DNA of 64,000 nt. It comes from Nereocystis luetkeana. Lineage: Eukaryota > Sar > Phaeophyceae > Laminariales > Laminariaceae. The position numbers were made by a program, and so were the translations under genes. Under the pieces are notes generated by a model, which saw only the letters and a program-made list of their open reading frames with translations, had not been told where the DNA came from and made no database searches. This document shows positions 13,340 to 64,000 of this stretch, one piece after another. Location: positions 744,001-808,000 of the forward strand of contig JARUPZ010000027.1 in assembly GCA_031213475.1 (NCBI GenBank). The letters are read 5' to 3'. The first letter of the stretch is position 1. Every line of letters begins with the position of its first letter.

Positions 13340-13349
13340 ATGTGTTCAT
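11751..13349 (-). pseudogene. LINE reverse transcriptase, unit 3 copy (5'-truncated)
   Basis: Open for 532 codons with the RT catalytic motifs (AYDSVD, YADD) intact, but the RT N-terminal part is cut off at about 13339. A short diverged copy of the LINE 3' end (CCGTTCTTCCTACC) follows at 13345-13385. Confidence 0.85.
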
Positions 13350-30895: not shown

Positions 30896-33624
30896 GTTAG
30901 GAAGCTGCACTTTTGAGAGAGAGTCGCGTCAAAACGTGCTATTATTTGAGTATAAATCTGCAACGCGCACGTGCGACAACCTAAGGGTAGGAGTAAACCT
31001 ATACCAGGTACTTAGTATTATACCACCACCAAAGGATCGGCATGAATCTGACCACAACCTCGTGGTCTGCAATATTCGCCTCTTGGGTCGGTTTGCGCCG
31101 AATCGGAGGGTAAAAGCAGGCAGCGGAAAACGAGCTATTGACCTACAACGGTTGATGGCAGACACCGGTCCCCGAGCGGACCTCAATAGGGAGATAACCA
31201 AACTTATCCCTCCACCGCCTGGTACAATTGGGAGTGCCGATGATATGGCGACTGCTCTAGTGGAGACCGTGCTGTCGACTGCTGCTAAACTAGCACCTCA
31301 TACCAGTCGAAAACAAGGGCCGCTGGGCTGGTGTACGCCCGGAGAGGTAAAAGCAGAGGTGCACTCACGATGGCAGGAGAAGGAAAATGCGAGGACGCAA
31401 CTACGTGCTAACCCGGGAGACAAAAATCTGCGAAAAGCTGTGAAGATTGCCACTAAACAGCTCAAACGTGCGAGGACGGACGGAGTGCAGGAGTTCTTCG
31501 AGGAATACGTCCGTCAACTCGAAAGGCGTATCCAAGAAGGCGATCAGTTTGGGTTCTACAAGCACCTTAAGGGGATGAATGTGGAAGGAAAGAGGACTTT
31601 CCATTCGCAGTACATCAGGGACGAGGAATGTAGATTATTTTACGAGACATCGGCCTCATCCGGGAACGATGGGTAAGGTGGTTCCATAAGCTGCTAAACA
31701 CCAAGTCATCGACCCTCGACCCGACTATCGTCGATGAGCTCAAGGTCTGGCCCTCGTGCAGTCCGCTGGATGACGTCCCGTCTAGATACGAGGTGGAAGA
31801 CGCGATCAGGGCGATGGCGAACCGCAAGGCGGTTCGGCCTGATGGTCTCCCAGTTGAACTTCTGAAGGTCCTGGCCGACGAGGGAGACTCGGACACCTTG
31901 GGAAGCTTCTACGAGATTATCGTCGCTGTGTGGAAGGGAGGGGTCGTGCCGCAGCAATGGAAGGATGCAACGATTAAGGTGCTGCACAAGAAGAAAGACA
32001 GGACGGAGTGCGGTAACTATCGTGGCATTTCCCCTGTCGCGCATGCCGGCAAAGTACGCCTCAAAGTCATCGCGCGCCGACTCCGAGACTACTGCGAACG
32101 GGAAGGCATCCTGCCAGAGGACCAGTATGGCTTTAGGCCCGAACGATCGACGGTCGACATGATGTTCGTGGTGCGACGCTTGCAGGAATCGGCAAGGAAG
32201 AAGGACACTCCGCTGTTCATGTGCTTTGTCGACCTCACCAAAGCCTATGACTCCGTCGACCGAACCCTCCTGTGGGCTGTCTTGGCTCGCTTTGGCGTGC
32301 CACCTAGAATGCTCACCGTTATCCGCCAATTCCACGACGGCATGCGAGCATGCGTGCGGCTGGATGACGGTGAGTACTCAGATATGTGCGACGTGAAACA
32401 GGGCCTACGGCAAGGGTGTGTGCTCGCGCCATTGTTGTTCAACATGTTTTTTACAGCGGTGCTGCGTGTGGCGGAGAAACGTTTCGCTGCTGATAAAGCC
32501 ATCACGGACAGCTTGGTGCAACTCCAACAAAAGCAGGAGAAGAAGAAAAAGAAGAGGGGGAAGGCACGGGCCGGGCACGCCGACGGACAGGGGAATAATA
32601 GAGAGGCCCAGACACTGTGGGCTATGCTCTATGCTGACGATGCGGGCATAGGATCTAGATCACCCAACGGCCTGGAGAGGATGATGACGGTGATCGTGTC
32701 TGCATGTGCCGCTTTCGGCCTGACGGTCTCGGAGGCCAAGACGGAGATAATGTGTCCGCAAACGAAAGATGGGGGGAACGTGCCGTTCACCGTCACCGCA
32801 GCCGGCCAAGTGTACAAACAAACGACCGAGTTTGTGTATCTGGGCGGGGCTATCAGCGCAGATGGACGGGCAGAAGTGTCTAGGTAACGCGTCGACTCCA
32901 GAGGGTATGGGCATGCTTCGGACGGTATAAGATGGAAATCTATGACCACCCGGGTGTGCGCCTACGCCTGAAGGTGCGAATGCTGAGAGCCGAGGTGATC
33001 GAAGCGTTGCTCTACGGTTGCGTCACTTGGAGCCCGAGCAAGACTGATTACGGTAGGCTACGGGAGGTCCACCACAAGATGCTCCTCCGATGCATCGGCT
33101 GGCGAAAACGAAAGCGCGAAGACCACATTCTATCCTATGCTAGCGCGCTCTCAGGACAAAATCTGAGAGCGTTGAGACGACGGTACGCAGACGTAGGCTC
33201 TTGTTTGCGGGCTTTGTGACACGCATGGGAGAGGAGCGTCTGCCTGCCGAAGAGGGTGATGTTTGGGGAGATGGTTGGGGGTAAGGGTTACTCCGGAGGA
33301 CAGGAGTGGGACTGGATGAGGTACCTTGAAGAGGACCTCAAGGAGTTCGGCATCAAGCTCGAAGGGTGGCGCGAGGCAGCACAGAAATCCGGTAGATGGT
33401 TCCGACGAGTCGAGGAAGGGGCGGAGGCCTTCATGCGGAAATGGTATACAGATGAGAAGGAGGCATCGGCAGAACGGCGTAGAATAGCTGCAACCACGAC
33501 CACAGCCGTTGACGCCAACGCGAGTGCGCAGAATGGCAGGGAAGAGGGGGGGGGCGAAAGGGGGAGGGGGGGGAGGCGGTCTACCCAACAGACTGAAGCC
33601 TGGTTATGGCCATCATCGTCATGA
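30882..33624 (+). pseudogene. Second LINE family: endonuclease end plus reverse transcriptase, three frames
   Basis: Frame 1 (to 31676) holds the C-terminal end of an AP-type endonuclease (RHESDHNLVV, the SDH catalytic motif) and the linker. A frameshift near 31640-31660 leads to the RT (31793-32887): [54 protein letters not shown] second frameshift near 32885 leads to the C-terminal part (32932-33624). A Lys-rich insert (KKKKKRGK) sits just before the YADD block. It carries the endonuclease end that the array LINE lacks. Dead, but related to the array LINE. Confidence 0.9.
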
Positions 33625-48369: not shown

Positions 48370-48675
48370 TCAAACGATCGAAGAGCCAAAAACGGCTACC
48401 CCTACCACCGCAATCAGAGAGAAAAAAAATGTCGCAGCTAGACGCGCCCCCGGCATTGCCCTTGTTGCCGCCCCCTCATCTCCAGCGCCGTCTACCCCAG
48501 CGACTGGAGCACGAGTTGCCTGCACGCTAGGGGAGGGGGGGGGCGTAAACCCCGCCCCGTTACACGAGACGGTGACAGTCTGGTTCGCCACCTCCGAGCC
48601 GCAGCCGTCGCACTCCACCACGCTCCAGATGGCGGTCGGAGATATGTCCGCAGGGTGACTTGCGCAGTTTTGTGT
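48370..48675 (-). CDS. Gene 2 terminal exon (C4): C module, linker and hydrophobic tail
   Basis: Phase-0 start after CACCCAG, 101 codons plus stop. Opens with the C-module core NCASHPADISPTAIWSVV then ECDGC, followed by VTVSCNGAG, a Pro/Ala/Gly-rich linker, and LAATFFFSLIAVVGVAVFG just before the stop. The tail resembles a GPI-attachment signal or a single C-terminal membrane segment, so the protein is probably tethered outside the cell. The conserved core and in-frame splice from 50271 support this end. Confidence 0.85.
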   Translation of the reverse strand, partial: TQNCASHPADISPTAIWSVVECDGCGSEVANQTVTVSCNGAGFTPPPSPSVQATRAPVAGVDGAGDEGAATRAMPGARLAATFFFSLIAVVGVAVFGSSIV

Positions 48676-48831
48676 CTGGGTGGGGTTTCATCCCAATTTA
48701 GTAGGCATGAAGGGGGGGGGGGGGGGTGGACTCATTATTATGCGTGGCCGTATTCGTATGAGGGTAGGGGGGGTTCACATGTTGGGGAAACAGTTGTAAT
48801 AATTTCCTGGTACCTGTTGATATACTTAGTA

Positions 48832-48855
48832 TACCAGGTACGTACCTGGTGGTGA
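48832..48855. repeat. TACCAGGTA/TACCTGG cluster
   Basis: TACCAGGTACGTACCTGG, one exact 9-mer with a mirrored near-copy. Confidence 0.6.
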
Positions 48856-49139
48856 TATTTTCACAATAAGAGAGCGTGTGCTGTATCGAAAACCTTGACA
48901 ACTTGTAACCAAGCAAATATAACACTGGGCTCTTTTGTACGAGTAACAACATGCATAGTTCAAATAACAGGGGCTGTTATTGGGAGTCTCAAGTCGACGA
49001 GCAGGCCGAAACAAGCAGGCTAACAAGCAAACGAATTTACAAAACGAAGCCATCAAAACAATCCACGCGGTGTGAAAACAAACCAACCCTACGGAGAAAC
49101 GACACAGCAGCAGTCGGCACACACTCCGTACAGTTGCCC

Positions 49140-49400
49140 CCTGCCCCGCGCAACTCATTGAAGCTGTCATCCACATGCAAGAAACTTAACTCCGCCTCAC
49201 AGGCGGTTCTTAGTAGGATGCAGCTCACCCTTCAAGCGACTCGCCGGACACCTCACGGCGCTTCGCGCTTGGTGCAAGCAATTGTCCGCCTGGTCGGTGA
49301 AAACCCGACGTGCTCCGTCCCGGCATCCTAGGGATGCGGAGGTCTACGTGTGGTCATACGACTACGGCCATGCATGAGGTCGAGTACATATCTCCTATCG
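49140..49400 (+). repeat. Dispersed repeat R4 copy
   Basis: Full core TCCGCCTGGTCGGTGAAAAC ... CATACGACTACGGCCATGCA. Serves as the unoccupied reference for the 9-mer insertion at 52787. Confidence 0.8.
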
Positions 49401-49526
49401 AGTACCCCCCCCCCGAACTTTCGCCTAACGTGTGCGCTCGGCTCTCTTTCGGTACCACGTAAAAAAGACAAAACAAAATGGTAAACCAGACTCAGGGACA
49501 AGAGCTAGGCATGTCTTGCAACCATA

Positions 49527-49612
49527 TAGAGCCGAAGTCCCGTTTTCGGGACAAGCCATTCATATTATGAGCAGTATGTTCCCAAAACGGGACTACAGCG
49601 CAAAAAGGGTTG
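49527..49612. mobile_element. MITE2 copy 7, diverged
   Basis: AAGTCCCGTTTTCGGGACAA ... CAAAACGGGACTACAG, ends eroded. Confidence 0.65.
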
Positions 49613-50008
49613 GAAGAGAAAAAACGCCTGCCATGATGGGGGCAGCACTTTATGGACTAAATGTATACGTACTGTGCAAGGCTCACGGGATCTCTCGATG
49701 CCGCTGAGGAACCACCAAGTGTCACTGGGAATATCGTGTTGTGTTTGAAGAAGACCGACTCAAGACCTAGCCCCTGCGAACGTTGCCGACAAAAAATGTC
49801 GGTTCTGCAGCAAAACATATACCGCGTGATTTGAGGGATGGTACCAATTCATGACCGAGTTACAATGGTTGAAAGCAACGAGTCATCTCGCACGGGCTCG
49901 GCACGATTGCACCGGTACTGCTGCTGGGCGCTGACGCTGCTTCAATGGTTGGTAGCACCAACGTGCTTTTGTTTTTGGTCGCTCTCTTCCAACACCCAAA
50001 GCTAGGGT

Positions 50009-50115
50009 TTGACCCTTTTAGGACTGCAGTCTCGTTTTGGGGACAATTGGGGGAAAATTACTTGGAATTTGAGTGGGTTGTCCCCAAAACGGGACTGGAG
50101 TTCTAAAGGGGTTAA
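50009..50115. mobile_element. MITE2 copy 8, variant with 10-bp insert
   Basis: CCCTTTTAGGACTGCAGTCT left, TTCTAAAGGGGTTAA right. Shares GGGGACAATTGGGG with copy 10, so the two form a subfamily. Confidence 0.85.
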
Positions 50116-50270
50116 GCGTAGACTTTTTCTGAAACCCGCTTACTTTTGTGTGATATTCGGAGCTTCTCGAATGAAGAAATTCGTAAAAATTGCAGGCACT
50201 ATATATAAACCCCCACCGCAGCATGCGTCAGTTACAAAAACATCCACCACTACACCAGTGGAAACCTCAC

Positions 50271-50461
50271 CCCGTAGAAGGGGAAGCCCCCGCCGCGCGG
50301 CGTGATGAGCCAGAAGCCGTCTTCGCAGAACTCCAGCCTCCGGTCAACCACCCCTTCCCCCTCCCCCCACCCCTCTCCGTCTCCCTCTCGCTGTTGTGGC
50401 TGGTCAAGTTCAAGGCCCTCGTCTTTTCGCCACCCGGCAGTAAACGCCTCCAGGGCCCATT
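50271..50461 (-). CDS. Gene 2 exon B4
   Basis: 63 codons plus 2 bases, phase 1-0, between GTGTGCAG and gtgagg. Reads WALEAFTAGWRKDEGLELD, a Glu/Gly-rich insert absent from other B exons, then LEFCEDGFWLITPRGGGFPF and YG. The conserved B core is Cys-x2-Gly-[YF]-Trp followed by Gly-rich and aromatic-Pro-aromatic. Confidence 0.85.
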
Positions 50462-51125
50462 CTGCACACGTAAACAAAACACACACCACAAAACACGCAC
50501 GCGAGCCAACGAATGCACAGAGAGACGATATTACATATTCCACTTCATAAAACGAGAGAAGAGAGTACGTACTTCACATGGCCGCCTGAAGTACAAGGCA
50601 TGCCTCATGAAGTACCATTACGGCCGAAAATATTAGAACCGTTTGCACATTAATATGAACACCAATAGGCTCTTATATTTACGCCCATAGTGGTATAGGA
50701 CATGCCTTCAGTTGGAGCTGGGCAAAGCCGGAGTTCTGGAGCCGGTTCTCCGCGGGGGCGAGTGTTAACCGCAGTACAAGAGTTGCTGTCATTACATGCA
50801 GTCAACCACAGCCCGACCGCAAAAGCACACGCAGCAGAGTCGAACTAAACAAAAAATCTCCCCGGCCCCTTTTTACTCCCATCTTACTGAAAAAATGTAT
50901 CCCACACTGAATCCGAGTACGTACAAACACGTGGGTTCGGTTCTATAAGGGAAATCGCGTCACAGCTAACCGCTCTCCTCGCTGTCCTCCCCCACCTCCA
51001 CCTCGGAAGGGATGCGTGGTTAATATGCTCAAGTGACTAAGGCGTTCAACAAATCGATCTGCCCTAAACGCCGCCTGGCACAGACAACCCCCTGCTCCAC
51101 CCGGCCTAGTGTATCAATAACTCAC

Positions 51126-51350
51126 CAAGTTCCTCGCTGCGCCGCTCCCCTCCCCCCCGGGCATAATCGCCGTCTGGGGCAGACAAACCCCTGCGGAAAC
51201 GGTTGCGGTTCACCGGCTTCCCGGCGTAAAACGCCCAATACATGTTCCAAACCCCGTTGTTGCTGAAGAAATCGCCCCGGTTACCCTGGGTACCCCGCTC
51301 CTTGTAAACGCCTGCTGCGGGGCCGGTGACGTACACGACCCCGCAGTTTG
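51126..51350 (-). CDS. Gene 2 exon A4
   Basis: 225 nt, phase 1-1 (acceptor TTGTGCAG, donor gtgagt). Reads NCGVVYVTGPAAGVYKERG, NRGDFFSNNGVWNMYWAFYA then a basic and Gly-rich end. The A pattern is C-x(3)-V-x-VTG ... G-x-Y ... N-R-x-x-FF ... aromatic cluster. Longer at its C-terminal side than A2 and A3 (74 against 62 codons). Confidence 0.85.
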
Positions 51351-51394
51351 CTGCACAAATCATGGAGCAAACATTGCACGAAATTGAACAAGGC

Positions 51395-51600
51395 GGTGAG
51401 GGGTCTGGGGTGGGGTGATGTGGGTTGGGTTGGGGAGGCGTGGAGTGGGTGGATAGGAGGGTGGTGGGTGGGTGTAACAGCGAACGGGAGTTCCGCAGCA
51501 AATTGCGGTGGGGTGGGGTGGGGTGGGGTGGAGTGGGTGGATCGGGGGGGTGGTGGGTGGGTGTAAAAACGAACGGGAGTTCCACAGCAAGGCCAGTACG
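51395..51600. repeat. G-rich duplicated tract in gene 2 intron
   Basis: Two copies of about 100 bp containing (GGGGT)n and CGAACGGGAGTTCC. On the transcribed minus strand it is a C-rich tract just upstream of exon A4. Confidence 0.75.
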
Positions 51601-52214
51601 GCGGTACGCTGTCTTTCAAGCGTTCAGCTCAGTCGGAAACAGGGGATAGCCCGCCCCAACCCTGTCCCCAGGAAAACCTCACTCGGAGACTAAAAAATCG
51701 ACCACCGAAGTCCCGCGTAGGTATCGAAAGAGAACGAGCCAATCACTACTACCGTCGATGTCGAACATCGACGACAAACCGAAAAGTCAACATCGATTCA
51801 ATCTCTGAACCGTAGGCACGACAGTAGAATGTATACGGGTACTCGTGGTGCGGCAGTCTTTCGGCTTTCGCGAAGCCACGGCGTCTCAGAGCAGTCACTT
51901 CTGCCACGTGCAGGCCTACACCACGTGCGTAGCGCAACAAAACCGTCTTCTCCCTTGACCTAGGTACGTTGTCTCGTAGACGCCGCCGATTGATATCGCT
52001 ACCGCTATAAAAATCATTCTGTCCAGGGAATTAATGAACATTTCAATAAAATACGAACATGCAAAGTGTCCTTACACTCAGAGACGAAGCTGTACGTACG
52101 TACATCGAAAGCAGGAGCCCTCTAGCTCCCTCGAAACTAATGCAGCAGTGCTTCTTTTTCCACGAAACCCTAAAGCTAAAACAGGCCACCATGCCACCAT
52201 GCCACCATCCTCAC

Positions 52215-52398
52215 ATTGCCCGCCAGGAAGGGGAGAAGGTGTCGGCGCCCCCGACCCCGCCGCGGCTCCCTCATGATCCGCGCACACGATGGTTGGCGTG
52301 ACGAATGAAGGAGTGTCTTGCACCCCGCACGTCTCACACGAGACAACGAGCCACGTGACTGCGCGAATGTCGGCGGGGTGCTGAGCGCAGTCGGGTGC
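52215..52398 (-). CDS. Gene 2 exon C3
   Basis: 61 codons plus 1 base, phase 0-1 (acceptor CGCCAG, donor gtgagg). Reads APDCAQHPADIRAVTWLVVS, CETCG ... VTPTIVCADHEG, then a Gly/Pro-rich end. Core C-A-x-[HY]-P-x-x-I, Trp, C-x2-C and a fourth Cys all conserved. The Cys/His set could form disulfides or bind metal; undecided. Confidence 0.85.
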
Positions 52399-52509
52399 CT
52401 GGCGGGGGGGGGGGGGGGTTCCGGAAGAGGGCCGGGGGGGGAGGGGGAGGGGCGGGGCGGGGGGTGAGGACCGAGGCAGGACGGCTGTGATGGTGTGTGG
52501 GGGGGTGTA

Positions 52510-52930
52510 CTGATGTCATGCATGGCCGTAGTCGTATGACCATGGACCCTCGCATCCCTATATAGGGGTGGGGGGGTGTAACCATGCCATGCATGGCCGT
52601 AGTCGTATGACCATGGACCCTCGCGTCCCTACAGGTACGGAGCACGCACATCGGGTTATCACCGACTAGGCGGACATCTGCTCATACCAAGCGCGAAGCA
52701 ACGTGAAGGGTTTGGCGCGTCTCATGAAAGGGCGAGCTGCGTCCTACTGTGGACTAAGAACCACTTGTGAGGAGGACTTTCTTGCATACCAGGTACCAGG
52801 TATGTAGACAGCGTCGAATAAATCGATTTGTTCTCTGGTGTGGCCACTTCCAGAGACAGCAATGGGCATACCACCGGTATGTAACTGCCTAGGGGGTGCC
52901 TTTCCATATACCAGGTACATACACTAGGTC
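52510..52930 (-). repeat. Dispersed repeat R4, minus-strand copy with duplicated end
   Basis: The ATGCATGGCCGTAGTCGTAT end is present twice (52519 and 52592). Contains a tandem pair of TACCAGGTA at 52787/52794 that other copies lack. Confidence 0.8.
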
Positions 52931-52957
52931 GTGAACATAATTCCTTTTTGTGCCGAG

Positions 52958-53054
52958 TTAACCCTTTTAGAACCGCAGTCCCGTTTTGGGGGCAAACCAT
53001 TCTAACTTCAAGTAGTTTGTCCCCAAAACGGGACTGCGGTTCTAAAGGGGTTAA
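52958..53054. mobile_element. MITE2 copy 9
   Basis: Intact TTAA on both sides, TIR CCCTTTTAGAACCGCAGTCC / complement. Confidence 0.9.
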
Positions 53055-53529
53055 GGTTCTCCACCCTGCACTAGATATCGGAGTCGACCACCAGCCATGA
53101 CGACCGCCATAAGAGAAGACGGTACCCTGGTCGTCTAGCTGTCGCAGTGATTGGCGTGTGTTACAGCGTCATTGCCAACCGACTCCAACCTAACCTATAA
53201 TATTTATACATGTATATAACAACTAGCCAGGGGGGGGGGGGGGGGTATACAGGGGGGGGTACCGATACGAGCCCACATCATTACCGTACGCCAGAAGTGT
53301 AGTATCGTCTTAGAGATAAACCACATATCGACTATTCAATATAGACCAGGTAGATACCACTATCACACGGGTGATAAGATAGCATACCCCCTGGGACCAA
53401 TTTCCGAGTGGAGAAAGCACACACAACCAAAGAAGGCGGCGTCTGGGAAGATCTCGCCGAGATCTCTTCATAACAGACCAATCGCTCGGCAATTGCACCT
53501 CCCCGTTGCCGAGGACATCGTCTGAGGGA

Positions 53530-53850
53530 GTGTGTTATCCTATCACCCAGTGTGATAGTGATATACGGTGTGTTTCCCTATCACCCAGTGAGTTGTACGG
53601 TGTGCTATCTAAATCATACGTGGTATACCATATGTTATCTTATCACACGTGTTACACCGTACCAGGTATGTGATTTTACCACCCAGTGTGTTATACGGTG
53701 GGTTATCTCATCACACGTCACATACCGTATGTTATCCTATCGCCCAGTGTGTAATACGGCGTGTTATATTATCACACGTGAGCTATATATGGTGTGTTAT
53801 ATTATCACCCAAGTGTGTTATACGGCGTAATATCTTATCACACGTGTGAT
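53530..53850. repeat. ACGGTGTGTTAT / TATCACACGTG minisatellite
   Basis: About 40-bp irregular units alternating TATCACCCAGTGTG and TATCACACGTG with palindromic cores. Sits within the intron after exon B3. Confidence 0.8.
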
Positions 53851-53897
53851 ATAGTACCAGAGTACGAGTCGTCGTCCATCGTCCTTGGCCCACTTAC

Positions 53898-53989
53898 CCC
53901 AAACACCGGGTAGCCAATAGTTCCGACCGGTGCCATGATCCAGTATCCAGACGTACACACCGCCAGACTTCGCGTCGCTACCGCGGCAC
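53898..53989 (-). CDS. Gene 2 exon B3
   Basis: 30 codons plus 2 bases, phase 1-0 (acceptor CTTTCAG, donor gtaagt). Reads AAVATRSLAVCTSGYWIMAP then VGTIGYPVFG: the shortest B exon but with the full Cys-Gly-Tyr-Trp and Tyr-Pro core. Confidence 0.85.
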
Positions 53990-53998
53990 CTGAAAGAG

Positions 53999-55424
53999 CG
54001 GACGCCATGGCTGCCACGTACGAGTAAACGTACGAGTAGCAGAGTGACGAGGAGAAGGGTAAAAAAAAAAAAAAAAACAAGCGGCGGGATAAGTGTCGTT
54101 TGGGCTTCGACATGTACCGTTCAGCTGTAGGCTGAACGTTGCGGCGGAAAATGAGCCGCTTGGCGCTCGGGATCGACGGCTGCGCTGACCATTGCGGCGG
54201 GATACGTGTTTCGTGTTAGACATCGGCTGTTGAGTCGTGTATAAAAGGTGCAGCGGAATACATCCCGTTTGTCATTCGGGGTCGGTTGCTTGGCTACAAG
54301 CTATTGGCGACGCTGATCGTCGTCGATTTATGGTGGCGCGCGTGAGTCGGTCGACTCCGAGGTTGCGCCAATGATAAAATATAAATTGGCATGTGCGGCG
54401 GAACCGCTGCCGATTGGGGGTATCGAACGTATAATACCCACGCGACACGCCTGTCGTCTGCGCTATAGCACAAATTGTATTTCATTGTACTGTAACATAT
54501 CGCCACGGTTAGGTAGAATCACAGCCGAGGTGAACGAAAAAAGACGCGGTGGCGCAGGATGGTGTCTCCTTGCAGTCGAGTCTCGATGGCAGCCTCATGC
54601 GGACGCGATTGATAGACAGACTACTATTTTAAATACGAATAGTATAACAAATACTTGCATGTTGGATGCCCTCTCCCCCCCCCTCCCAAACCGATCACAA
54701 GGCAACCAACGACATCGAAACGCATGGTCGAAGCTATAGCACAACCAGACGAACGGATGAACACGCAACATATGTATGTAACTCCTGTACTGCAGTACCA
54801 GGCATGCCGCACGGGCGATCGACCGACGTGACATATCGTGTATTACGATATTATGACAAGCATTGCCGAGCTGAGTTCCGAATATCCAATTCGGTCGTAC
54901 TCACAAGCAATAATTATGTGACAACTGACGCACGAACAACTCTCCAAGATAACATCGGGTTTGTTGTTGGAGAACGAACGCACGCTCATACGCCTGAAAA
55001 AAAAAAAAACGTTGTGGCCAAGAGAACTATCGTGTACCAGTAGATACAGCAGTACTTAACATTACGACGACGAGCATGCGCCGGAGCAGAGATTGCATAC
55101 TTTCTTCCCCTTTTGTTTCCCTCTTAAGGTTCATTCTTATCGGAGAGCGTTTTTTCCATAATTTCCAAAGGTTGGACATAATTGGAGATATGTATCAATA
55201 TACGGAGGCGTTCTGTCACTATCCGTGAATTTCTCCAGAACCAAAAATATCAAGTTCGTTAACCTTCCGATATTTGGAAGAAAAAAAACAGGAAAATATG
55301 GAAGATTGAAAAATTGCGCGAAAACAACGTCGAAAAATTGGACAAAAAACTCTCCGATATGAATGACCCTAACAACGCCATTTTTTTTTTCATCCTTCTT
55401 TGTCTCTCCCTACTATTAAAATTA
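53999..55424. other. Gene 2 intron, no recognised feature
   Basis: Several open frames of 60-125 codons with no motif and no exon-like splice phase match. Confidence 0.4.
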
Positions 55425-55610
55425 ATAGCTGTAACTCAGATCAGGGGTGTCACACAGCAGGCTCTCCTCCTCTCTACCCCCTCCCCACTACGGTTCGTGC
55501 CTTGGAAGGCATTTTTATCGCCTTTGACAGAACACTCCGGCCTTTCTTTTTCTTCCCTCCTTAACTCGCGTCTTACTGCGCAGCTGCACGGGTCTAAGGC
55601 ACTGCAAACC
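55425..55610 (-). repeat. Diverged relative of the SINE S body
   Basis: GTAACTCAGATCAGGGGTGT, CACTACGGTTCGTGCCTTGG, TCTTCCCTCCTTAACTCGCG follow the order of the SINE body in minus orientation. Confidence 0.55.
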
Positions 55611-55675
55611 GTAACTGTCAGGCGACAAAGCAGCTATTAATAGCTATTCACAGCGCCGTGGGCGTTCTTTCTCAC

Positions 55676-55864
55676 CATCCCCGGGGACAGTACGCCTCTG
55701 TCCGTCCTGGTCTTCGGCGGCCAAGGCTCTGCGCGAGGCGGTGAGCTCGAAGTAGAGGTTGACGGTTCGGTCGCTGTTGAAGAAGTCCAGTTTCCCCCGG
55801 TAGGTGCCGTTGGCGGTGAAGTTGCCACGATAGTCCCCGGTGACCACCAACGTCTCGCACGTGG
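55676..55864 (-). CDS. Gene 2 exon A3
   Basis: 189 nt, phase 1-1 (acceptor TTAAG, donor gtgaga). Reads TCETLVVTGDYRGNFTANGT, YRGKLDFFNSDRTVNLYFEL then a charged end. Same length as A2. A C-terminal donor shared in position with A2 supports duplication of whole modules. Confidence 0.85.
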
Positions 55865-56094
55865 CTTAATTTAAAAGGACAAAACGGACAAAAAAAGACA
55901 AAAAAAAAACAAAAAAACAGAAAAAACAGAAAAAATAAAATACCGCAGAAGCAAACGAAGCACACCACCGTCTCGGAGGTGGGTCAAGTGGTGGTCTCAC
56001 ACAAGATAAAGCTAGAAAAAAACAAACAACCGCAATACGTACTTGTACAAGGTAAAATATGCAAACAAAACTACAATACCAAATACGCCGCAAA

Positions 56095-56580
56095 ACGGTT
56101 ACAACCCCGTCACAAAACCGTTACAAAACGGTTACAAAGCTGGAGAAAAACGGCCACGAACCGTTCATACGAGCTGGCGATACACCAACCACAATCCGGT
56201 CTTCCACATCGGTTAACCCTTTTAGGACTGCAGTCTCGTTTTGGGGACAATTGGGGGCAAATTACTTGGAATTTGAGTGGCTTGTCCCCAAGACGGGACT
56301 GGAGTTCTAAAGACACCGCCAATAAACCGGCTAAACAAGGGTGACAAAAAGGATTACAAAATGGTCACAGCAAGGTTCCAAGCCGGTCTCAAAACAACCA
56401 CAAAACATACACAAAAACGGTTACAAAACGGTTTCAAAAACGGCTTTCAAAACTAAAAAGCCTTACAAAACGAATACAACACGGTCACGAGACCGGTTAG
56501 ACAACGGCTACGAAGCAGTTGCACAACGGTCACCAACCGGCCAAAACGGCTTACAAGACGGTTACAACACGGTTACAAAG
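56095..56580. repeat. ACGGTTACAAA minisatellite in gene 2 intron
   Basis: About 10-12-bp units (ACGGTTACAAA, ACGGTCACGA) spread over 480 bp and interrupted by a MITE2. Ends just before exon C2b. Confidence 0.8.
56213..56311. mobile_element. MITE2 copy 10
   Basis: Subfamily with GGGGACAATTGGGG. The right TTAA is lost. Confidence 0.8.
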
Positions 56581-56590
56581 AAAAACTCAC

Positions 56591-56735
56591 AAGAGACGGA
56601 GGCCACTGGCGAAGGCGTAACACCCCCTGGTTCAACGGCCCCTACAGGGGACGGCGTCAGCCAGCTCCCCCCCCTTTTGATATTCTCAGGCGCACCCGTA
56701 CACGTAGCAGCTGGCTTGGGAGTAGCAGTCACCAC
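56591..56735 (-). CDS. Gene 2 exon C2b
   Basis: 48 codons plus 1 base, phase 0-1 (acceptor AATTAG, donor gtgagt). Reads VVTATPKPAATCTGAPENIK, then a Pro/Gly/Val-rich end. It matches the second half of other C exons (VTPTIVCADHEG in C3) and supplies the phase-1 donor that exon C2a lacks. The weak acceptor makes the upstream edge less certain than others. Confidence 0.7.
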
Positions 56736-56769
56736 CTAATTAATAGCGAAAAAATACCGTCAAACGCGA

Positions 56770-57150
56770 GGTGCTTGATATTTTGCATTGCACATATCGA
56801 TCGAATAGATCAGATAGATCAAACAGATCAGACATATCAGATGGATCACATAGGTCAGACAGATCCGATAGATCAGATATATCAGACAGAACAGACAGAA
56901 CGGTTAGATCAAATAGATACGATAGATCATCAGATAGATCAAATATATCAGTTGGACCACAACCCGCGGTCATGAAATGTCGTGCAGAATCTGTGTAGTA
57001 CAGATCCAGCCCAAGAAAATTGAGCTTTATCATGCAGACTATACGGCTCCCACCCGGCAACATGATCTAGATCATACAGATCATACATATCATACATATC
57101 ATAAACAGATGATCTATCTATCTATCTGCCCTGAATGATCTAGATGGTGA
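56770..57150 (-). repeat. GATC-word dispersed repeat, copy 5
   Basis: A long run of CAGATAGATCA-like words (56800-56960), then the family core inverted (CCCACCCGGCAACATGATCT, TATCTGCCCTGAATGATCTA). Confidence 0.75.
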
Positions 57151-57544
57151 ACATGGGGAAAATATCTACCCTACTTAGGTGTGCAATGTCGCAAGTCCTT
57201 GAGATTTTCAGCAACCGCCTCAGAACTAACTACTCGACATTAGAGTGCGATAGGGTTTGCACTACTGTACATAGTAAAAGCGTCAGGGCACTAGAGTGGG
57301 AAACGTTTAGCTTTAGTGAAGGCAATAGTGCGGGGGGGTGGCGGGGATGGGAGGGGGGATAGGGGTGGAGCGGGAGGGGAGGGGGTTGGGTGGGGATGGT
57401 AGGTCTTCCCAAAATGTAAGAAGCAACGAACGTGTCCAACCACAAGAGGTAAAGACAGGCCAAAAACTGGTATGAATACGTATCGGTACAGCCATCGGTG
57501 GTGGCATGATTTGTATGCTTTCCGGCCACGGTTCGAAGAGCGGA

Positions 57545-57770
57545 AACAGAGCACACAGCTTTTGCATCGCCACCGGGAACTGAAAGTCAAGGCTAGCCAG
57601 TCAAGGATGAGCCCAAAGCTAAGGACAAGACTTGAGCTTTTGGATCGCCGCCGGCAACTGAAAGTCACAAGGCCAGCTATTGATAGTGAAGGTCCAAGAT
57701 CCATCCCAAGGTCAAGACTTGAGCTTTTGCATCGCCGCCGGCAACCGAAAGTCAAGGCCAGCTAGCCAAG
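57545..57770. repeat. Imperfect tandem repeat in gene 2 intron
   Basis: GACTTGAGCTTTTGCATCGC, CGCCGGCAACTGAAAGTCAA occurs three times at about 85-90 bp spacing, with GGCCAGC joints. Confidence 0.8.
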
Positions 57771-57873
57771 GCTATAAGACCAGCCCTAAGGTCAAGACTT
57801 GAGGCTACCACAAGAGAAGCCGCAGTGGAAAAGGCGCTGCGCTGCTCCGAAAGGTACAGAGCACGTTACACAT

Positions 57874-57982
57874 TATTACGGGGGACCATGGTTAATAGGA
57901 CCTATGGTACACACAAAAACCTATTCAACTATCTATTTTTACTAACAATATTTGGTCCTATTTACTATGGCCCCCCGTGATA
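57874..57982. mobile_element. MITE1 copy 9
   Basis: TATTACGGGGGACCATGG ... GGCCCCCCGTGATA. Confidence 0.85.
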
Positions 57983-58597
57983 CCACTCTGTTCAGAAATG
58001 ACGCCAGACGCGTTCTACGATAGAGGAAGCACATTTCCGCTAAAATGTATCTGAATGACGGGGCTTCTTAACCCAAAATCGTCGCAATGCCAATCTTGAT
58101 GCGAAAAATGACTTTCTTGTATACTTGGGCCATGGGATTATTCATCGGGATGCCATTTGATTTTTGCCGAAGTCAGTTTTCGCGTGAGGTATGAAACTCC
58201 TCAAGTGAGGAGCCTCAGAAAATTAAGGGTCAACCTCTATCGTAGAACACGCCTCGCCACCGTTTGTGTACTCATGTGAACCCCCAAACGGTGACTATAT
58301 TTCCGGGCAGAGGGGGGTACCTTGGAGCACGCTACAAGCGACACATCATTCCGCAAACGACACGCAATTCCGCACAGCAGAAGCATTCCCTCAAAATACC
58401 CAGACCAGCACCAAAACTACGAAATACCAGGCCCGCATGTTCTTTCATCACAAAAAAAAAAAACAAGCGGCGAAGCGGCGCTCGGGTCATTCCTTGGGAT
58501 ATATATAGTCTCATTGACAAGCTGGGGTTAAGGCTAGGGACCGCGCAAAAAGAAACGAGGTGTGAGATGAGGAGCGAAGTGTGATACCGGAGCTCAC

Positions 58598-58672
58598 CGC
58601 GCAGTCTTCGCAGTCAAGGTAGACCCAGTTTGTGTTGACGATGTCCACAGGGTGCAACGCGCAGTCCGAAAC
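58598..58672 (-). CDS. Gene 2 exon C2a
   Basis: 25 codons, phase 0-0 (acceptor CCTCAG, donor gtgagc). Reads VSDCALHPVDIVNTNWVYLD then CEDCA. This is the first half of a C module only. An extra intron, not present in C1, C3 or C4, separates it from C2b. Reading on past 58598 stays open for a while but loses the pattern, so the splice is preferred. Confidence 0.8.
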
Positions 58673-59429
58673 CTGAGGGAGCAGGAAAAAGGGTCAGAAC
58701 AAAAAGCTGGCAATGTTAACACGATGAGCACAGGTTGCACAAGACAAGGAGGCGGAGCGAAGAGGGGCGAGGGGAGAGCCAGGGGCGGGTGCTGTCTGTT
58801 TGCTTCATCAGCCCATTTCATTTCAGGATGGTCTGTTTTTGTGGCCAAGGAGTAGAACAAGTTTTCATGAGATGACAACAACAACGACAAAAATAACAAA
58901 AGAACCAATACCAACACCAACAACAACAGCAGCAGCAACTGCAGGTCCTGCGGGCCCACCTATGGGGCAATTGCTACCAGTGTTTCGTATGAAGGCTTCC
59001 TACCGGGCGGTCGGTAACGTGTACGGATCCATAAAGCTGGTGTATTCCACCGCAAAAAAAAAAAAAAAAACTGTCAACGCCGAAAAAAAACAAGGACACC
59101 CACCCGCAGGTTGGCATTGAAGTCGCCACCAGAGGTCAGCAGAGTCGCCACGATGAGCGGTGCACGCAGTAGGCACGGGTTCGCGGCAGAACCGCGGTCA
59201 TACTCGTACACGACTACACGACTGCAGTATCTCACGCTTACACGATGCCATCAAGACGTGCCTACGTACAATAATCCAAGCAATCTTAGACGACTGCGCT
59301 ACGCTACATGGTTACACTGTTGACAGTGGCAGCAGCAGTACTGACGTGCGTGCCGCAAGACAAGCATACCATACGCTCACCACACGCCGCGCTACGCTGG
59401 CTGAATCTCGTCAATAGTCCATAATCAAT

Positions 59430-60120
59430 CAATCCATCACCTCGCCTGGTGCATCAATCTATCAGTACACAAACCCATCAACCCTCAATCCCTTAACCCC
59501 TCGTACCATCTATCCATCCTTAGCTGATTCTATCACTCCATCAATCCCTTACCCTACCGTAGAAATACTTTCACATTTCATTCGTCCATCAACTCGCCAG
59601 TCCATCAACAAGTTACCCTGCTAATTCATCATTAGCTGCATCGTCTATCATCCCATCAACCCATCAACAGAAGACGAACATATTAACGCAAAACACGGGG
59701 ATTGTTTATCCCGCAATTCATCATAATCCCGGCGCATATGCGAGGATCGTCTACCCATCCACCCATCAATGATGATGTCACCGCAAAAGCGAGGCATCTT
59801 CCATCAACCCACCTATCCACCAATCACAACCTCGCCGCACCAACGGGGTATTGATCAACCCACCAATTCATCGCAATCTCACCGCATATGCGAGGATCAT
59901 CAACCCATCAAAAGACACTACCACCGCAAAAGCGGGGTATCTTCCATCTACCCACCGTTCCACCAATCATAATCAGGCCGCATGAAGGGCGTATTCATCG
60001 ATCCACCAATCCATCACAATAATGCCGCATATGCGAGGATCATCAACCCATAACCGATACTACCACCGCAAAAGCGGGGTATCCTCCATCAACCCATCAA
60101 TCCACCAATCATAATCTCAC
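59430..60120. repeat. Intronic array derived from an exon end and splice donor
   Basis: 59430-59780 is a loose CATCAATCCA repeat. 59780-60120 has units of about 141 bp with short palindromes (CCGCAAAAGCGG, CCGCATATGCGAGG). The unit AATCATAATCTCACCGCAAA AACGGGGTAT is the exon B2 end with its donor, read on the plus strand. The array thus continues seamlessly into exon B2 at 60121. Confidence 0.75.
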
Positions 60121-60233
60121 CGCAAAAACGGGGTATTTTTCGCCGGCGGGAATAATATACCAGAAACCTTCGCAAGCTTGTTGCAGTTCGCGCGATGTGT
60201 GAACCTCAGGAGCGAGAGGAGCGAAAGGCACAT
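60121..60233 (-). CDS. Gene 2 exon B2
   Basis: 37 codons plus 2 bases, phase 1-0 (acceptor CGGCCAG, donor gtgaga). Reads [19 protein letters not shown], then [19 protein letters not shown] core conserved: Cys-Glu-Gly-Phe-Trp and Tyr-Pro-x-Phe. Confidence 0.85.
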
Positions 60234-60324
60234 CTGGCCGTACAGCAGAGCAGGACATCGGATGGATCGTAGGGGGGTAGGGTAGGGGAGAGAAGACAAT
60301 CATCGGGAGTCAGCGTGCGGGACG

Positions 60325-60560
60325 ATGGGTGGATGGATGGATGGATGGATGGATGGATTGATGGATGGATAGGTGGATTGATGGATAGATGGATTGATGG
60401 ATTGATGGATGGATACGTGGGTACATCGATAGGTGGATACCTGGTAGGTGGATGGATGGATAAGTTGATGGGATGAACGGATGGATGGGTGGGTGGATAA
60501 ATGGATGGAATGGTGAATGAATGGATGGATAGATGGATTAGTTGATGGGATGGATGGACT
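60325..60560. repeat. GGAT tetranucleotide repeat
   Basis: (ATGG)n and TGGATTGATGGATGGATA variants with decay, one TACCTGGTA at 60438. Confidence 0.9.
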
Positions 60561-61274
60561 AGCGGAGGTAGCGGTTTGGATCGAACACGCTGTCGTCCTT
60601 CTGGGCAGTATCGAGGTTATCCGGTTATCGTCCTCGTCACCTCTCGAAGTCGGTGGAAAATCGTCCCCCGTTTCACGCCCTTCTTTACATGAAACGGACT
60701 AAAACACAGCGGGACGACCGACCAAGTAGCTGGTCTGCTCCTTTTTTCACGTAAGCCTTTTATTTTCTACCCATTGCTCCGCACCCTCACTGTCCTGCTC
60801 CTTTTGCACGAACGCCTATTCTTTGGTAGTCATTCCCCCGCACCCCGACTTTACAAAAGCCTCTCTTACCTGTAGTATATCCACCCGCGGAAAGCACAAC
60901 AGAGGGGACGCGGGACGCGACATCCCCCAAAAGCTGACTTTGCCCATTCCACGATTGATACATGCGACCGGCATCGGCATAACAGCGGGATGATCGAGCG
61001 CCAACACAATCAACACACTCGCAGCAACCCTGTGTACCCCTCTGCTCCTCGCTCCTCCCCTCCCCCCGATAATTAGCAATGTAGACCTTCCTCGCGGCCT
61101 AAACAAACCAACATCAACCAATGAAAACGTGTACATCTCCTTCAACAAGATCCCACAAACCTCACAACAACAAAATCTCTCCAAGAAGAATACCGCATCG
61201 CTTCCGAAAAAAACGCATATCACTTCCCCCCCCCCCCCCCCCAAACCCCCCCCCCCCCCCCCCCTCTCTCTCAC
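60561..61274. other. Gene 2 intron
   Basis: A C tract at 61226-61263 is the transcript's G-rich stretch just after exon A2. No further exon recognised. Confidence 0.4.
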
Positions 61275-61463
61275 CCCGATAGTCCTCCCCCGAGACAAGC
61301 CTCCTCATCCTCTCGCTGTACGTAACGAGCGCGGGAGCCGGACCGGTGAAAAATAACCTGAACTTTCCGTCGTCGCTGAGAAGGTCAGCACGGTCATTGA
61401 ACTCCCCTGTCACGGTGTAATCGCCGCCCCGCACTCCTGTAACGCTGACCTCTTCGCACGTTG
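61275..61463 (-). CDS. Gene 2 exon A2
   Basis: 189 nt, phase 1-1 (acceptor CCCCCAG, donor gtgaga). Reads TCEEVSVTGVRGGDYTVTGE, FNDRADLLSDDGKFRLFFTG then a charged end. Shows the A pattern: Cys-Glu, Val-Thr-Gly, Gly-x-Tyr-Thr, Asn-x-Arg and an aromatic strand. Confidence 0.85.
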
Positions 61464-61848
61464 CTGGGGGAGGCGTTATTTTTTTTCCCCCACAGCGGTT
61501 TCGTGTTTTCGCGCGAGGGAAAGAGGGGGAGGGCGCGGTTCAAAACGGCGCTCACGGAGTGAGAACATTTTTTTTTGCTGTCAACCCCCTTGACAACGGC
61601 AAACACGGTTTGGGTTCAAACTATTAATCGTTCGATTTCGAATTGAGATTTTCTGGGAATTTTCTGAGAAATTTCGTGGAGTAGAAAAAGGGTTTATTTA
61701 TTGACCCGCATATAGGAGGAACTAACTCTCCACTGCAAACATAATTCCGTTCTACGAGTATTCATATTATAAGTAGTACTTATACCACTCACGACATTCC
61801 TTTTCTTTTCGAAAGTTGACGTATATGGGACCGTTTTCTTATTGTATC

Positions 61849-61952
61849 TAGTACGGGGGGCCATAGTTAATAGGACCTATGGTACACATAAAAACCCGTA
61901 TATTTGACCATTTTCACTAACAATATTTGGTCCTATTAACTATGGCCCCTCC
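61849..61952. mobile_element. MITE1 copy 10
   Basis: Left end TAGTACGGGGGGCC, right end eroded (GGCCCCTCC). Confidence 0.8.
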
Positions 61953-62155
61953 ATGGTGATGGTATGTATGCGCCGGCTAACAATACCGGCACTATAGCGG
62001 CAACTGGAACTACTCCGCACACCACCACACTGGTTCGTCCCATCCTACACCACTCTGTCCCATGATATAAAAACCGGTTTTACACTAATTGTTAAACCAA
62101 ACGGTGTTTATATTACGGGACAGAGTGGTGTGTGCCAAGCGATTCCACAGGCACT
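61950..62155 (-). repeat. Dispersed repeat R5 with a nested palindromic MITE
   Basis: Matches 24007-24230 inverted. Inside, 62048-62132 is a palindrome (CACCACTCTGTCCCATGATA and its near-complement) absent from the other copy, so it looks like a third MITE family. Confidence 0.6.
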
Positions 62156-62499
62156 ATACCATACACACTATTGTAGGGGGATCAGATCACTACTATCTAC
62201 TACACTGCAAACAGTAGCCCACTTGAACCTCAAGTTATTCGTAAAGTGCAGCAGTAAGATGCAAGGTGTTGAAGGCAACGCGGGCGGTAGCACAAACACG
62301 GGGCACACTCGCAAGTTTGCCAAAATGTTACCTAGAGCCACCAAGCCTGGGTTTCCGGTGAAGACGGCGTTTCTGACTCCCATAAGTTGACAGGACCCAC
62401 CGCCTATCTCCCTTAATGACCGAAAAAATGCACACGGCACAAACAACTCTTCGAAAGGAAGGTATGGCTCCTCGTCGACACCTTTTCCGCGCACGAGGA

Positions 62500-62600
62500 C
62501 GGTCAAATGTCTGCCTGGTCGTTGAAAACCCGACGTGCTCCGTCCCGGCATCGTAGGGACCATGGCCATTCGACTACGGCCATGCATGACATCAGTACCC
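62500..62600 (+). repeat. Dispersed repeat R4, 3' part
   Basis: GTCTGCCTGGTCGTTGAAAA through CTACGGCCATGCATGACATC. Confidence 0.75.
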
Positions 62601-62784
62601 CCCCCCCCCCCCCCGACATCTGACCGCTACTTCCCAAAGGAATTCCTCCTCGCCGAGCCAGCAAAAATACATGATGGCTGGTCTATCGTCCCCATGAACT
62701 GCAAACAAAAACTGTGCCTTGTTTATCCCCCCTCAACACCTAGGCAGTACCGCCTCCACCCACAGTACCAAAACCAGCACTTAC

Positions 62785-62995
62785 TTAAGCCTGTGCCAGG
62801 CAGGGAGTCCACAGCGCCACCGGCCTTTCGTATCGGGGGCACAGGGGAAGGGGTCGCCACGAAAGCGTCTTCTCCGGTGGCGCACGCGATGGCCTGGGCG
62901 CCAGTAGCCGGGCCGGCGTCGCAGTCGGCGCAGGTAATAATCAGCCAGGAAGCTGTGGTCGCGATGTTCTCGGGATAGACCGCACAATCTGCCAC
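62785..62995 (-). CDS. Gene 2 exon C1
   Basis: 70 codons plus 1 base, phase 0-1 (acceptor TATAAG, donor gtaagt). Reads VADCAVYPENIATTASWLII, TCADCDAG, AIACATGEDAFV and a Pro/Gly-rich end. Tyr replaces the usual His of the CAxHP core. Both halves of the C module are in one exon here, unlike C2. Confidence 0.85.
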
Positions 62996-63247
62996 CTTAT
63001 AGACAAGGAGGAGGCGGAGCAAGTGGGAGGGGGGGGGGGGCGTACTCATTTGTTGCTCGCCTCAGTCGCTTTTGCAAGCGGGGGGCGGGGGGGAAGGGGG
63101 GGTATTCTCTTCCATATTATACCTGGTAGTAAACGGGTGTATTGATCTCTGGACCGAGCCCCATGGTCGACTCTCCTCCCCCCCCCCGCCTCCCATACTA
63201 CAGAAAAACGCCTCATTGCTACTGTTCGGACCAATAAAAAAACTCAC

Positions 63248-63366
63248 CGCAAAGAAAGGGTAGCCTCCACCGGTGGGAGTCTTGATCCAGTACCCGATAT
63301 CGCACGCCGCCAGTCCCCTCTCGAACTCCCGCCCACCTCCCTTCGCCCGGTAGGCGGTAATGACTT
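63248..63366 (-). CDS. Gene 2 exon B1 (most 5' exon seen)
   Basis: 39 codons plus 2 bases, phase 1-0 (acceptor ACGGCAG, donor gtgagt). Reads VITAYRAKGGGREFERGL, AACDIGYWIKTPTGGGYPFF and A. A preceding A exon is expected by phase but I found none before the window ends, so the gene's start lies beyond 64000. Confidence 0.85.
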
Positions 63367-64000
63367 CTGCCGTGCAGGTGAACGCGAAAACAGGGGAGCA
63401 AGGCAACATACAGGACGCGATTACAAATATTTTGTGACTGCAACAAGTGGACAAACCAGGTTACTTGGAATTAGCGCACGATCTTTTTGCAGATTCAGAA
63501 GGGCTACGTAAGGCGACCGAAGACAGTGGCGTCGGCAGAGGTAGTCGCTATCAATCAGGGGACAAAAACATAAAACCCCCTGGGGTTTCCGAGATGTGGC
63601 ATGTCGCCTTCGACTCGAAAATGTGACGTACGTGCGCGTCGCCTGCCTTTTCCGGTGGTGAACTCCCTATCCGACCACGGGTTCATGTGGGACGGGAAAA
63701 AACTCTGCGCCAGGACGAAGAAGATACGGGTACGTACTGCTTCCGCTGCTAATACTGATGATGATGAGGCTGATGGTGGTGTTGATGATGCTCATGATGA
63801 TGGTGGTGCTGCTGATGCTCGTGATGATGGTAATGATGACGATGGTGACGAGCATGAGGAAAATGAAGACATCACGATCACCCCAACATACTCACTCACA
63901 CAGCGCACCCAGCATGATCCAAGACTCGCCCATACAAGACACGCAACACTCGCTAAACCCACACAGTACATAAACAGAACTACATACTTAGATCACAACC
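63367..64000. other. Upstream gene 2 intron with GAT/GGT microsatellite
   Basis: A TGATGATGGTG-type imperfect microsatellite at about 63748-63860. No A-type exon recognised. Confidence 0.5.

What the first reader, a model, noticed from the sequence alone, without database searches (positions are those of the whole stretch)
48370..63366. Unrecognised tandem-module gene: twelve exons in an A-B-C cycle with perfectly matching phases
On the minus strand, exons at 63366, 62995, 61463, 60233, 58672, 56735, 55864, 53989, 52398, 51350, 50461 and 48675 (5' ends) join with no stop to 678 codons. Type A exons are phase 1-1, B 1-0, C 0-1 in every module. Each type keeps its own core: VTG/GxY/NxR (A), Cys-x2-Gly-Tyr-Trp and Tyr-Pro (B), CAxHPxxI-Trp-CxxC (C). 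The last ends with a hydrophobic tail. This order and phase agreement cannot be chance. The module as a whole matches no family I know; a secreted or anchored surface role is inference.
Basis: partly seen in the sequence, partly recalled or inferred. Interest (0 to 1): 0.88.

Follow-up and report, generated by a model that had tools for sequence, protein, structure and literature searches.

The report
Five-module surface protein of brown algae
The exons are real: they are the last three and a half repeats of a brown-algal protein that looks secreted and membrane-anchored, built from a domain that no searched sequence library names, and each repeat carries a paired motif that could be a built-in cutting signal.

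Summary
Twelve minus-strand exons with GT-AG introns join to 678 codons and a stop. The spliced protein is 55-58% identical over 89-91% of its length to predicted, unnamed proteins of Ectocarpus, Scytosiphon and Ascophyllum, so the gene is real and brown-algal. Orthologues have five modules; the window holds B+C of module 2 and all of modules 3-5. Correction: the cycle is not perfect, because the C unit of module 3 is split by an extra phase-0 intron. Each complete module has six cysteines and is predicted as one mainly-beta domain (pLDDT 77). Pfam, NCBIfam and PDB-profile searches gave no relative. Twelve of 12 tails examined look GPI-like. New here: every module has an R-x-L just before the B cysteine (19/19) and at least one more R-x-[LM] upstream in the A-B linker (18/18), and in the window the A-B intron lies between them. 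Best reading: a secreted, GPI-anchored wall or surface protein whose modules may be cut into two disulphide-tied chains. Cleavage, anchor and binding partner are inference. Inner modules are class 1-1 symmetric units, the kind behind animal matrix proteins, here in an independently multicellular lineage.

The parts
63248..63366 (-). exon B of module 2 (phase 1-0); R-x-L at 63319-63311 before the B cysteine
62785..62995 (-). exon C of module 2 (phase 0-1)
61275..61463 (-). exon A of module 3 (phase 1-1); R-x-L at 61305-61297
60121..60233 (-). exon B of module 3 (phase 1-0); R-x-L at 60192-60184
58598..58672 (-). first half of the C unit of module 3 (phase 0-0)
   Evidence: aligns without gap to orthologues
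56591..56735 (-). second half of the C unit of module 3 (phase 0-1); carries the sixth cysteine
55676..55864 (-). exon A of module 4 (phase 1-1); R-x-L at 55730-55722
53898..53989 (-). exon B of module 4 (phase 1-0); R-x-L at 53972-53964
52215..52398 (-). exon C of module 4 (phase 0-1)
51126..51350 (-). exon A of module 5 (phase 1-1); R-x-L at 51192-51184
50271..50461 (-). exon B of module 5 (phase 1-0); R-x-L at 50342-50334
48370..48675 (-). exon C of module 5, then a low-complexity stalk, hydrophobic tail and stop
48373..48435 (-). hydrophobic C-terminal tail without charged residues, GPI-signal-like

Best explanation
SHOWN by sequence: this is the 3' two thirds of a conserved brown-algal gene for a five-module protein. 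Each complete module (A+B+C exons) is 132-195 residues with six cysteines, separated from the next by a low-complexity spacer; the protein ends in a hydrophobic tail. The modules keep the same order in the four sequences compared, so the tandem duplications predate the split of the Ectocarpus and Ascophyllum lineages. PREDICTED: each module is one mainly-beta domain. INFERRED: the protein is secreted and GPI-anchored, and the modules form a disulphide-tied array at the cell surface or in the wall, most likely binding wall polymer or partner cells. INFERRED, weaker: in the secretory pathway an R-x-L-cutting protease cuts twice in the flexible linker between the A half and the BC half, removing a stretch of 15-75 residues, so each mature module is two chains held by disulphides.
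For: Orthologues P0001 (Ectocarpus sp. CCAP 1310/34, 977 aa), P0002 (Scytosiphon promiscuus, 1024 aa), P0003 (Ascophyllum nodosum, 977 aa) at 55-58% over 89-91%; the same 3 were the only hits of the full-length profile at E up to 10 among the 7990 candidates scored. Six cysteines in 16 of 16 complete modules; the other 3 (A half missing or cut in the model) have five. Modules cluster by position: 5 of 5 positions monophyletic, support 0.95-1.0; same position in different species 51-76% identical (22 pairs), different positions in one protein 28-42% (29 pairs). Model of one module pLDDT 77.2, pTM 0.74, strands in A, B and C parts. Tails hydrophobic and uncharged in 12 of 12 examined. R-x-L-x(2,3)-C before the B cysteine in 19 of 19 modules. 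At least one more R-x-[LM] upstream in 18 of 18 testable linkers: 30 sites against 11.2 +/- 3.0 in shuffles, 0 of 1000 as high; reversed motif 11 against 11.2; none in 15 spacers between modules. Of the 32 module hits, 13 of 13 A-type and 9 of 9 B-type ORFs examined keep the site. In the window 7 of 8 R-x-[LM] are these sites, one in each of 3 A and 4 B exons; the eighth is in the tail stalk. Model segments under pLDDT 50 (46-57, 78-85) overlap the first and hold the last R-x-L of that module.
Against: No transcript, proteomic or cleavage data. Only one of the three orthologue models has a signal-like N-terminus. The shuffles ignore relatedness; per species the count is extreme in two (0 of 1000) but not in Ascophyllum (67 of 1000) or the window (111 of 1000). 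Basic pairs and R-x-x-[LM] are enriched too, so the exact motif is open. In module 2 of the orthologues most acidic residues lie before the first site, not between the two, so the picture of an excised acidic linker does not fit there. The middle R-R-L-L of the modelled module (59-62) is not in a segment under pLDDT 50. In oomycetes RXLR cutting seems confined to regions soon after the signal peptide (PMC11754927, abstract), unlike these internal sites. No fold match points to a binding role.
Confidence: 0.7

Rival explanations
1. Same protein, but the linker is never cut: R and L before the B cysteine are structural residues of the domain, and the upstream R-x-L clusters are basic patches of the linker.
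For: R and L are among the 15 columns invariant in the 15 of 19 modules aligned, together with Cys, Gly, Trp, Pro and Ile. Basic pairs are enriched as well (39 against 15.0 +/- 3.4), so the signal may be about basic clusters, or a kexin-like site, rather than R-x-L as such.
Against: In the model the first and last sites overlap or lie in segments under pLDDT 50; the reversed motif is at chance and R-x-[AG], R-x-[DE] are below chance.
Confidence: 0.5
2. A receptor ectodomain or recognition protein diversified by exon shuffling, like the brown-algal ROCO-LRR and NB-TPR genes.
For: One-unit-per-exon genes with matching phases are known in brown algae and read as candidate immune receptors (PMC11378527, passages).
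Against: Module order is the same in the four sequences compared; no hit outside the known exons better than E 1.1; at most a few residues follow the hydrophobic stretch; one full-length orthologue cluster per named species.
Confidence: 0.1
3. A decayed or misjoined set of exons (pseudogene, or pieces of two genes).
For: Long repeat-filled introns and retroelement ORFs elsewhere in the window; the extra intron in C of module 3.
Against: 678 codons open with the cores kept, and the match to orthologues runs across the junctions.
Confidence: 0.03

Closest known systems
Orthologous predicted proteins of Ectocarpus sp. CCAP 1310/34, Scytosiphon promiscuus, Ascophyllum nodosum ('unnamed protein product')
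   Same: Same protein: same module order, cysteines, spacers and tail
   Different: Annotated only as unnamed; the window protein is 55-58% identical to them, and its species is not known to me
Class 1-1 symmetric extracellular modules of animals (PMC8001218, passages)
   Same: Extracellular (inferred here), mainly beta (predicted here), units bounded by phase-1 introns
   Different: Different domain and lineage; only tandem duplication inside one gene is shown, no spread to other genes
Exon-per-repeat ROCO-LRR genes of brown algae (PMC11378527, passages)
   Same: Brown-algal gene with repeats in separate exons of matching phase
   Different: Those are 72-bp phase-2 LRR exons, shuffled and alternatively spliced, in ROC-COR proteins; here three or four exons per module and fixed order
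RXLR processing site of oomycete secreted effectors (PMC11754927, abstract)
   Same: R-x-L in a probably flexible stretch of a stramenopile protein; there the cut is after the L, before secretion
   Different: Here the last site has no second R, sites are internal and repeated in each module rather than soon after a signal peptide, and no cut has been shown

Membership tests
Orthologue group of P0001-P0003 | End-to-end similarity with same module order | tested here: met
   the window lacks the first part of the gene
Any Pfam or NCBIfam family | Profile match (E up to 1 allowed) | tested here: not met
   0 families in Pfam for the spliced protein and one module and for three orthologues; 0 in NCBIfam for three orthologues
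GPI-anchored proteins | C-terminal hydrophobic tail with no charged residues in or after it | tested here: met
   12 of 12 sequences examined
GPI-anchored proteins | N-terminal signal peptide | tested here: inconclusive
   hydrophobic stretch in P0002 only; P0001 and P0003 models look truncated, window lacks the start
GPI-anchored proteins | Lipid anchor on the protein | not testable with these tools
   needs biochemistry
Class 1-1 extracellular modules | Module bounded by phase-1 introns on both sides | tested here: met
   modules 3 and 4 are complete and run phase 1 to 1; module 5 ends at the stop
Class 1-1 extracellular modules | Module found in otherwise unrelated proteins | tested here: inconclusive
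   3 protein searches found only this gene or its exons, but they need shared 5-residue words; the own-genome search did not complete
ROCO-LRR receptors | LRR motifs and ROC-COR domains | tested here: not met
   no Pfam match in the spliced protein or the orthologues
RXLR effectors | RXLR motif soon after the signal peptide | tested here: not met
   the sites are internal and repeated in each module; the site before the B cysteine is R-x-L followed by A, G, E or Q
Known folds in PDB | Clear structural match | tested here: inconclusive
   Foldseek and VIA-align on a model of middling confidence

The most novel reading that the evidence does not exclude
Every module is a self-splitting cassette: made as one chain, then cut at two R-x-L sites so that a piece of its linker is removed and the two halves stay tied by disulphides. 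The two halves are also separately bounded by phase-1 introns, so gene architecture and protein processing follow the same division. It would extend R-x-L processing, known for export motifs of oomycete pathogens, to an ordinary wall or surface protein of brown algae, suggesting an ancestral stramenopile secretory protease. And it would give an independent, non-animal case of class 1-1 module building in a multicellular lineage.
Probability: 0.28. Interest if true: 0.68.

Novelty: new variant of a known kind. Interest (0 to 1): 0.5.

Why it matters
Brown algae evolved complex multicellularity on their own, and far more is known of the sugars than of the proteins of their walls (general knowledge). 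This is a conserved, disulphide-rich, probably surface protein, found here only in brown algae, whose domain the searched sequence libraries do not name. Its modules show the class 1-1 exon symmetry that a review describes for animal extracellular proteins while asking why exon shuffling is restricted to Metazoa (PMC8001218, passages). If the R-x-L pairs are cut, they give a repeated reporter for an R-x-L protease in stramenopiles, in a harmless host protein.
Full report
What was checked. With the acceptors stated and in-phase GT donors, exons 63366-63248, 62995-62785, 61463-61275, 60233-60121, 58672-58598, 56735-56591, 55864-55676, 53989-53898, 52398-52215, 51350-51126, 50461-50271 and 48675-48370 join to 678 codons and a stop; all 11 introns are GT-AG, 252 to 1862 bases long.

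It is a real gene. A search of 5.8 billion proteins with the spliced sequence returned three proteins (7989 candidates scored), all brown-algal predicted proteins without a name: Ectocarpus sp. CCAP 1310/34, Scytosiphon promiscuus and Ascophyllum nodosum, 55-58% identical over 89-91%. The alignment runs through the junctions: by my reading 9 of 11 lie in conserved gap-free sequence and 2 in the variable A-B linkers. The orthologues carry five modules; the window holds exons B and C of module 2 and all of modules 3, 4 and 5. The A exon of module 2 and what precedes it were not found in the window and must lie beyond position 64000.

Correction to the cycle. The order in the window is B C, A B C C', A B C, A B C. 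Exon 58672-58598 is phase 0-0 and exon 56735-56591 is 0-1; the orthologues show that the two make one C unit. So one extra phase-0 intron breaks the otherwise regular A 1-1, B 1-0, C 0-1 rule.

Conservation of the exon edges. A search with a module profile gave 32 hits; two (P0010, P0030) are the window's own exon ORFs. Most are single-exon ORFs from unnamed contigs. At the end of exon A of module 5 they read G-E or G-K, the translation of a phase-1 GTRAG donor, in 9 of 9 outside the window; at the end of exon B of module 5 they read V-R or V-S, a phase-0 donor, in 8 of 8 outside the window that run into the intron. They are not all independent species: P0021 and P0033 are 96-98% identical to P0003, P0016 and P0034 95-96% to P0001. 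Six hits (P0004-P0009) run straight from B into C; they may be transcripts or genomes without that intron. P0009 shares its contig length with P0028, whose A exon runs into an intron, which hints at genomic DNA lacking the B-C intron in that species; this is inference from equal contig lengths only.

Anatomy of a module. Sixteen of 16 complete modules have six cysteines; three incomplete ones have five. Fifteen columns are invariant in the 15 of 19 modules aligned. AlphaFold2 on one module (Ectocarpus module 4) with 19 rows gives pLDDT 77.2 and pTM 0.74: four strands in A, two helices after A and in the linker, two strands in B and three short ones in C, so the three exons most likely make one domain. 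The earlier full-length model was poor (39.2). Pfam, NCBIfam and PDB-profile searches gave no family; fold searches are told under Tried and rejected.

Anchor. The last residues are hydrophobic and uncharged in 12 of 12 sequences examined. P0002 alone has a start with a hydrophobic stretch. A GPI anchor is the simplest reading, not a proof.

Paired R-x-L motifs. Just before the B cysteine every module has R-x-L-x(2,3)-C, 19 of 19. The linker upstream of it has at least one more R-x-[LM] in 18 of 18 (30 sites, shuffle mean 11.2, sd 3.0, 0 of 1000 shuffles as high). The first site lies 2 to 30 residues into the linker as I cut it, and 15 to 75 residues separate the two sites. Controls: the reversed motif is at chance (11 against 11.2), R-x-[AG] (16 against 24.7) and R-x-[DE] (8 against 22.5) are below chance, and none of the 15 spacers between modules has one. 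Against: basic pairs (39 against 15.0) and R-x-x-[LM] (23 against 10.9) are also enriched, so the exact motif is not settled; sequences are related, and the count test alone is not significant in Ascophyllum (67 of 1000) or the window (111 of 1000), although the every-linker measure is low in each (24 to 47 of 1000). In module 2 of Ectocarpus and Scytosiphon nearly all acidic residues lie before the first site (19 against 1 and 13 against 1 between the sites), while in modules 3 to 5 they lie mostly between the sites. Of the 32 module hits, 13 of 13 A-type and 9 of 9 B-type ORFs examined keep the site; P0006-P0009 and P0016 start after it, P0023 and P0032 hold only C, and P0035 and the window's own two were not in that count. 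In the window, 7 of the 8 R-x-[LM] in 678 residues are these sites, one in each of 3 A and 4 B exons; the eighth is in the tail stalk. In the module model the segments under pLDDT 50 are residues 46-57 and 78-85, which overlap the first R-R-L-L (45-48) and hold the last R-R-L (82-84); a middle R-R-L-L (59-62) is not in such a segment. The A-B introns map near model residues 65-76, between the sites, for modules 4 and 5; module 3 could not be placed by alignment, but its two sites also lie in separate exons.

Mechanism. Shown: a conserved five-module protein with a strict module plan. Inferred: it is secreted, anchored at the cell surface or wall, and the modules bind something there. Inferred and weaker: a protease of the secretory pathway cuts at the R-x-L sites. 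In oomycetes, also stramenopiles, RXLR is cut between L and R before secretion; [quoted passage not shown] Here the sites are internal, so this protein is not an RXLR effector; only the kind of processing is compared.

Evolution. Modules group by position with support 0.95-1.0 under both models tried; same-position identity 51-76%, different-position 28-42%, with the two modules lacking most of A left out. So the duplications are older than the split between the Ectocarpus/Scytosiphon and Ascophyllum lineages, and no shuffling or conversion has blurred them since in these four sequences. Modules 3 and 4 are class 1-1 symmetric units, and so are their A part and their BC part. A review holds that the domain types used in animal exon shuffling are of class 1-1, that the most used are mainly beta, and asks why exon shuffling is restricted to Metazoa (PMC8001218, passages). 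This gene shows the module type in another multicellular lineage; it does not show spread to other genes. It differs from the phase-2 LRR exons of brown-algal ROCO genes (PMC11378527, passages).

Limits. No transcripts; the own-genome search did not complete, so paralogues in this species were not sought; protein searches need shared words, so distant relatives may exist.

Noticed in passing
59779-60193: Intron 4 holds a tandem array of about 142-143 bp units; the third, 60% alike, overlaps exon B of module 3. By eye the units repeat the exon end and its donor-like site, as if the minisatellite grew out of the exon-intron junction.
   Followed up: partly
49522-49611, 50009-50115, 52958-53054, 56213-56312: About 90-107-bp elements, at least two with 38-40-bp terminal inverted repeats, sit in introns; MITE-like.
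   Followed up: no
2311-3936, 7333-9408, 11751-13349 (-), 31793-32887 (+): Four reverse-transcriptase ORFs (Pfam RVT_1, E 7.9e-29 or better); by eye three near-identical copies and one diverged.
   Followed up: partly
48713-48760, 52497-52631, 62555-62614 and 49279-49334, 62504-62559: Short dispersed repeats, some in opposite orientations, that recur in several introns of the gene.
   Followed up: no
P0004-P0009 (unnamed contigs): Module 5 reads from B into C without an intron, so the B-C intron may be absent in some brown algae, or these are transcripts.
   Followed up: partly
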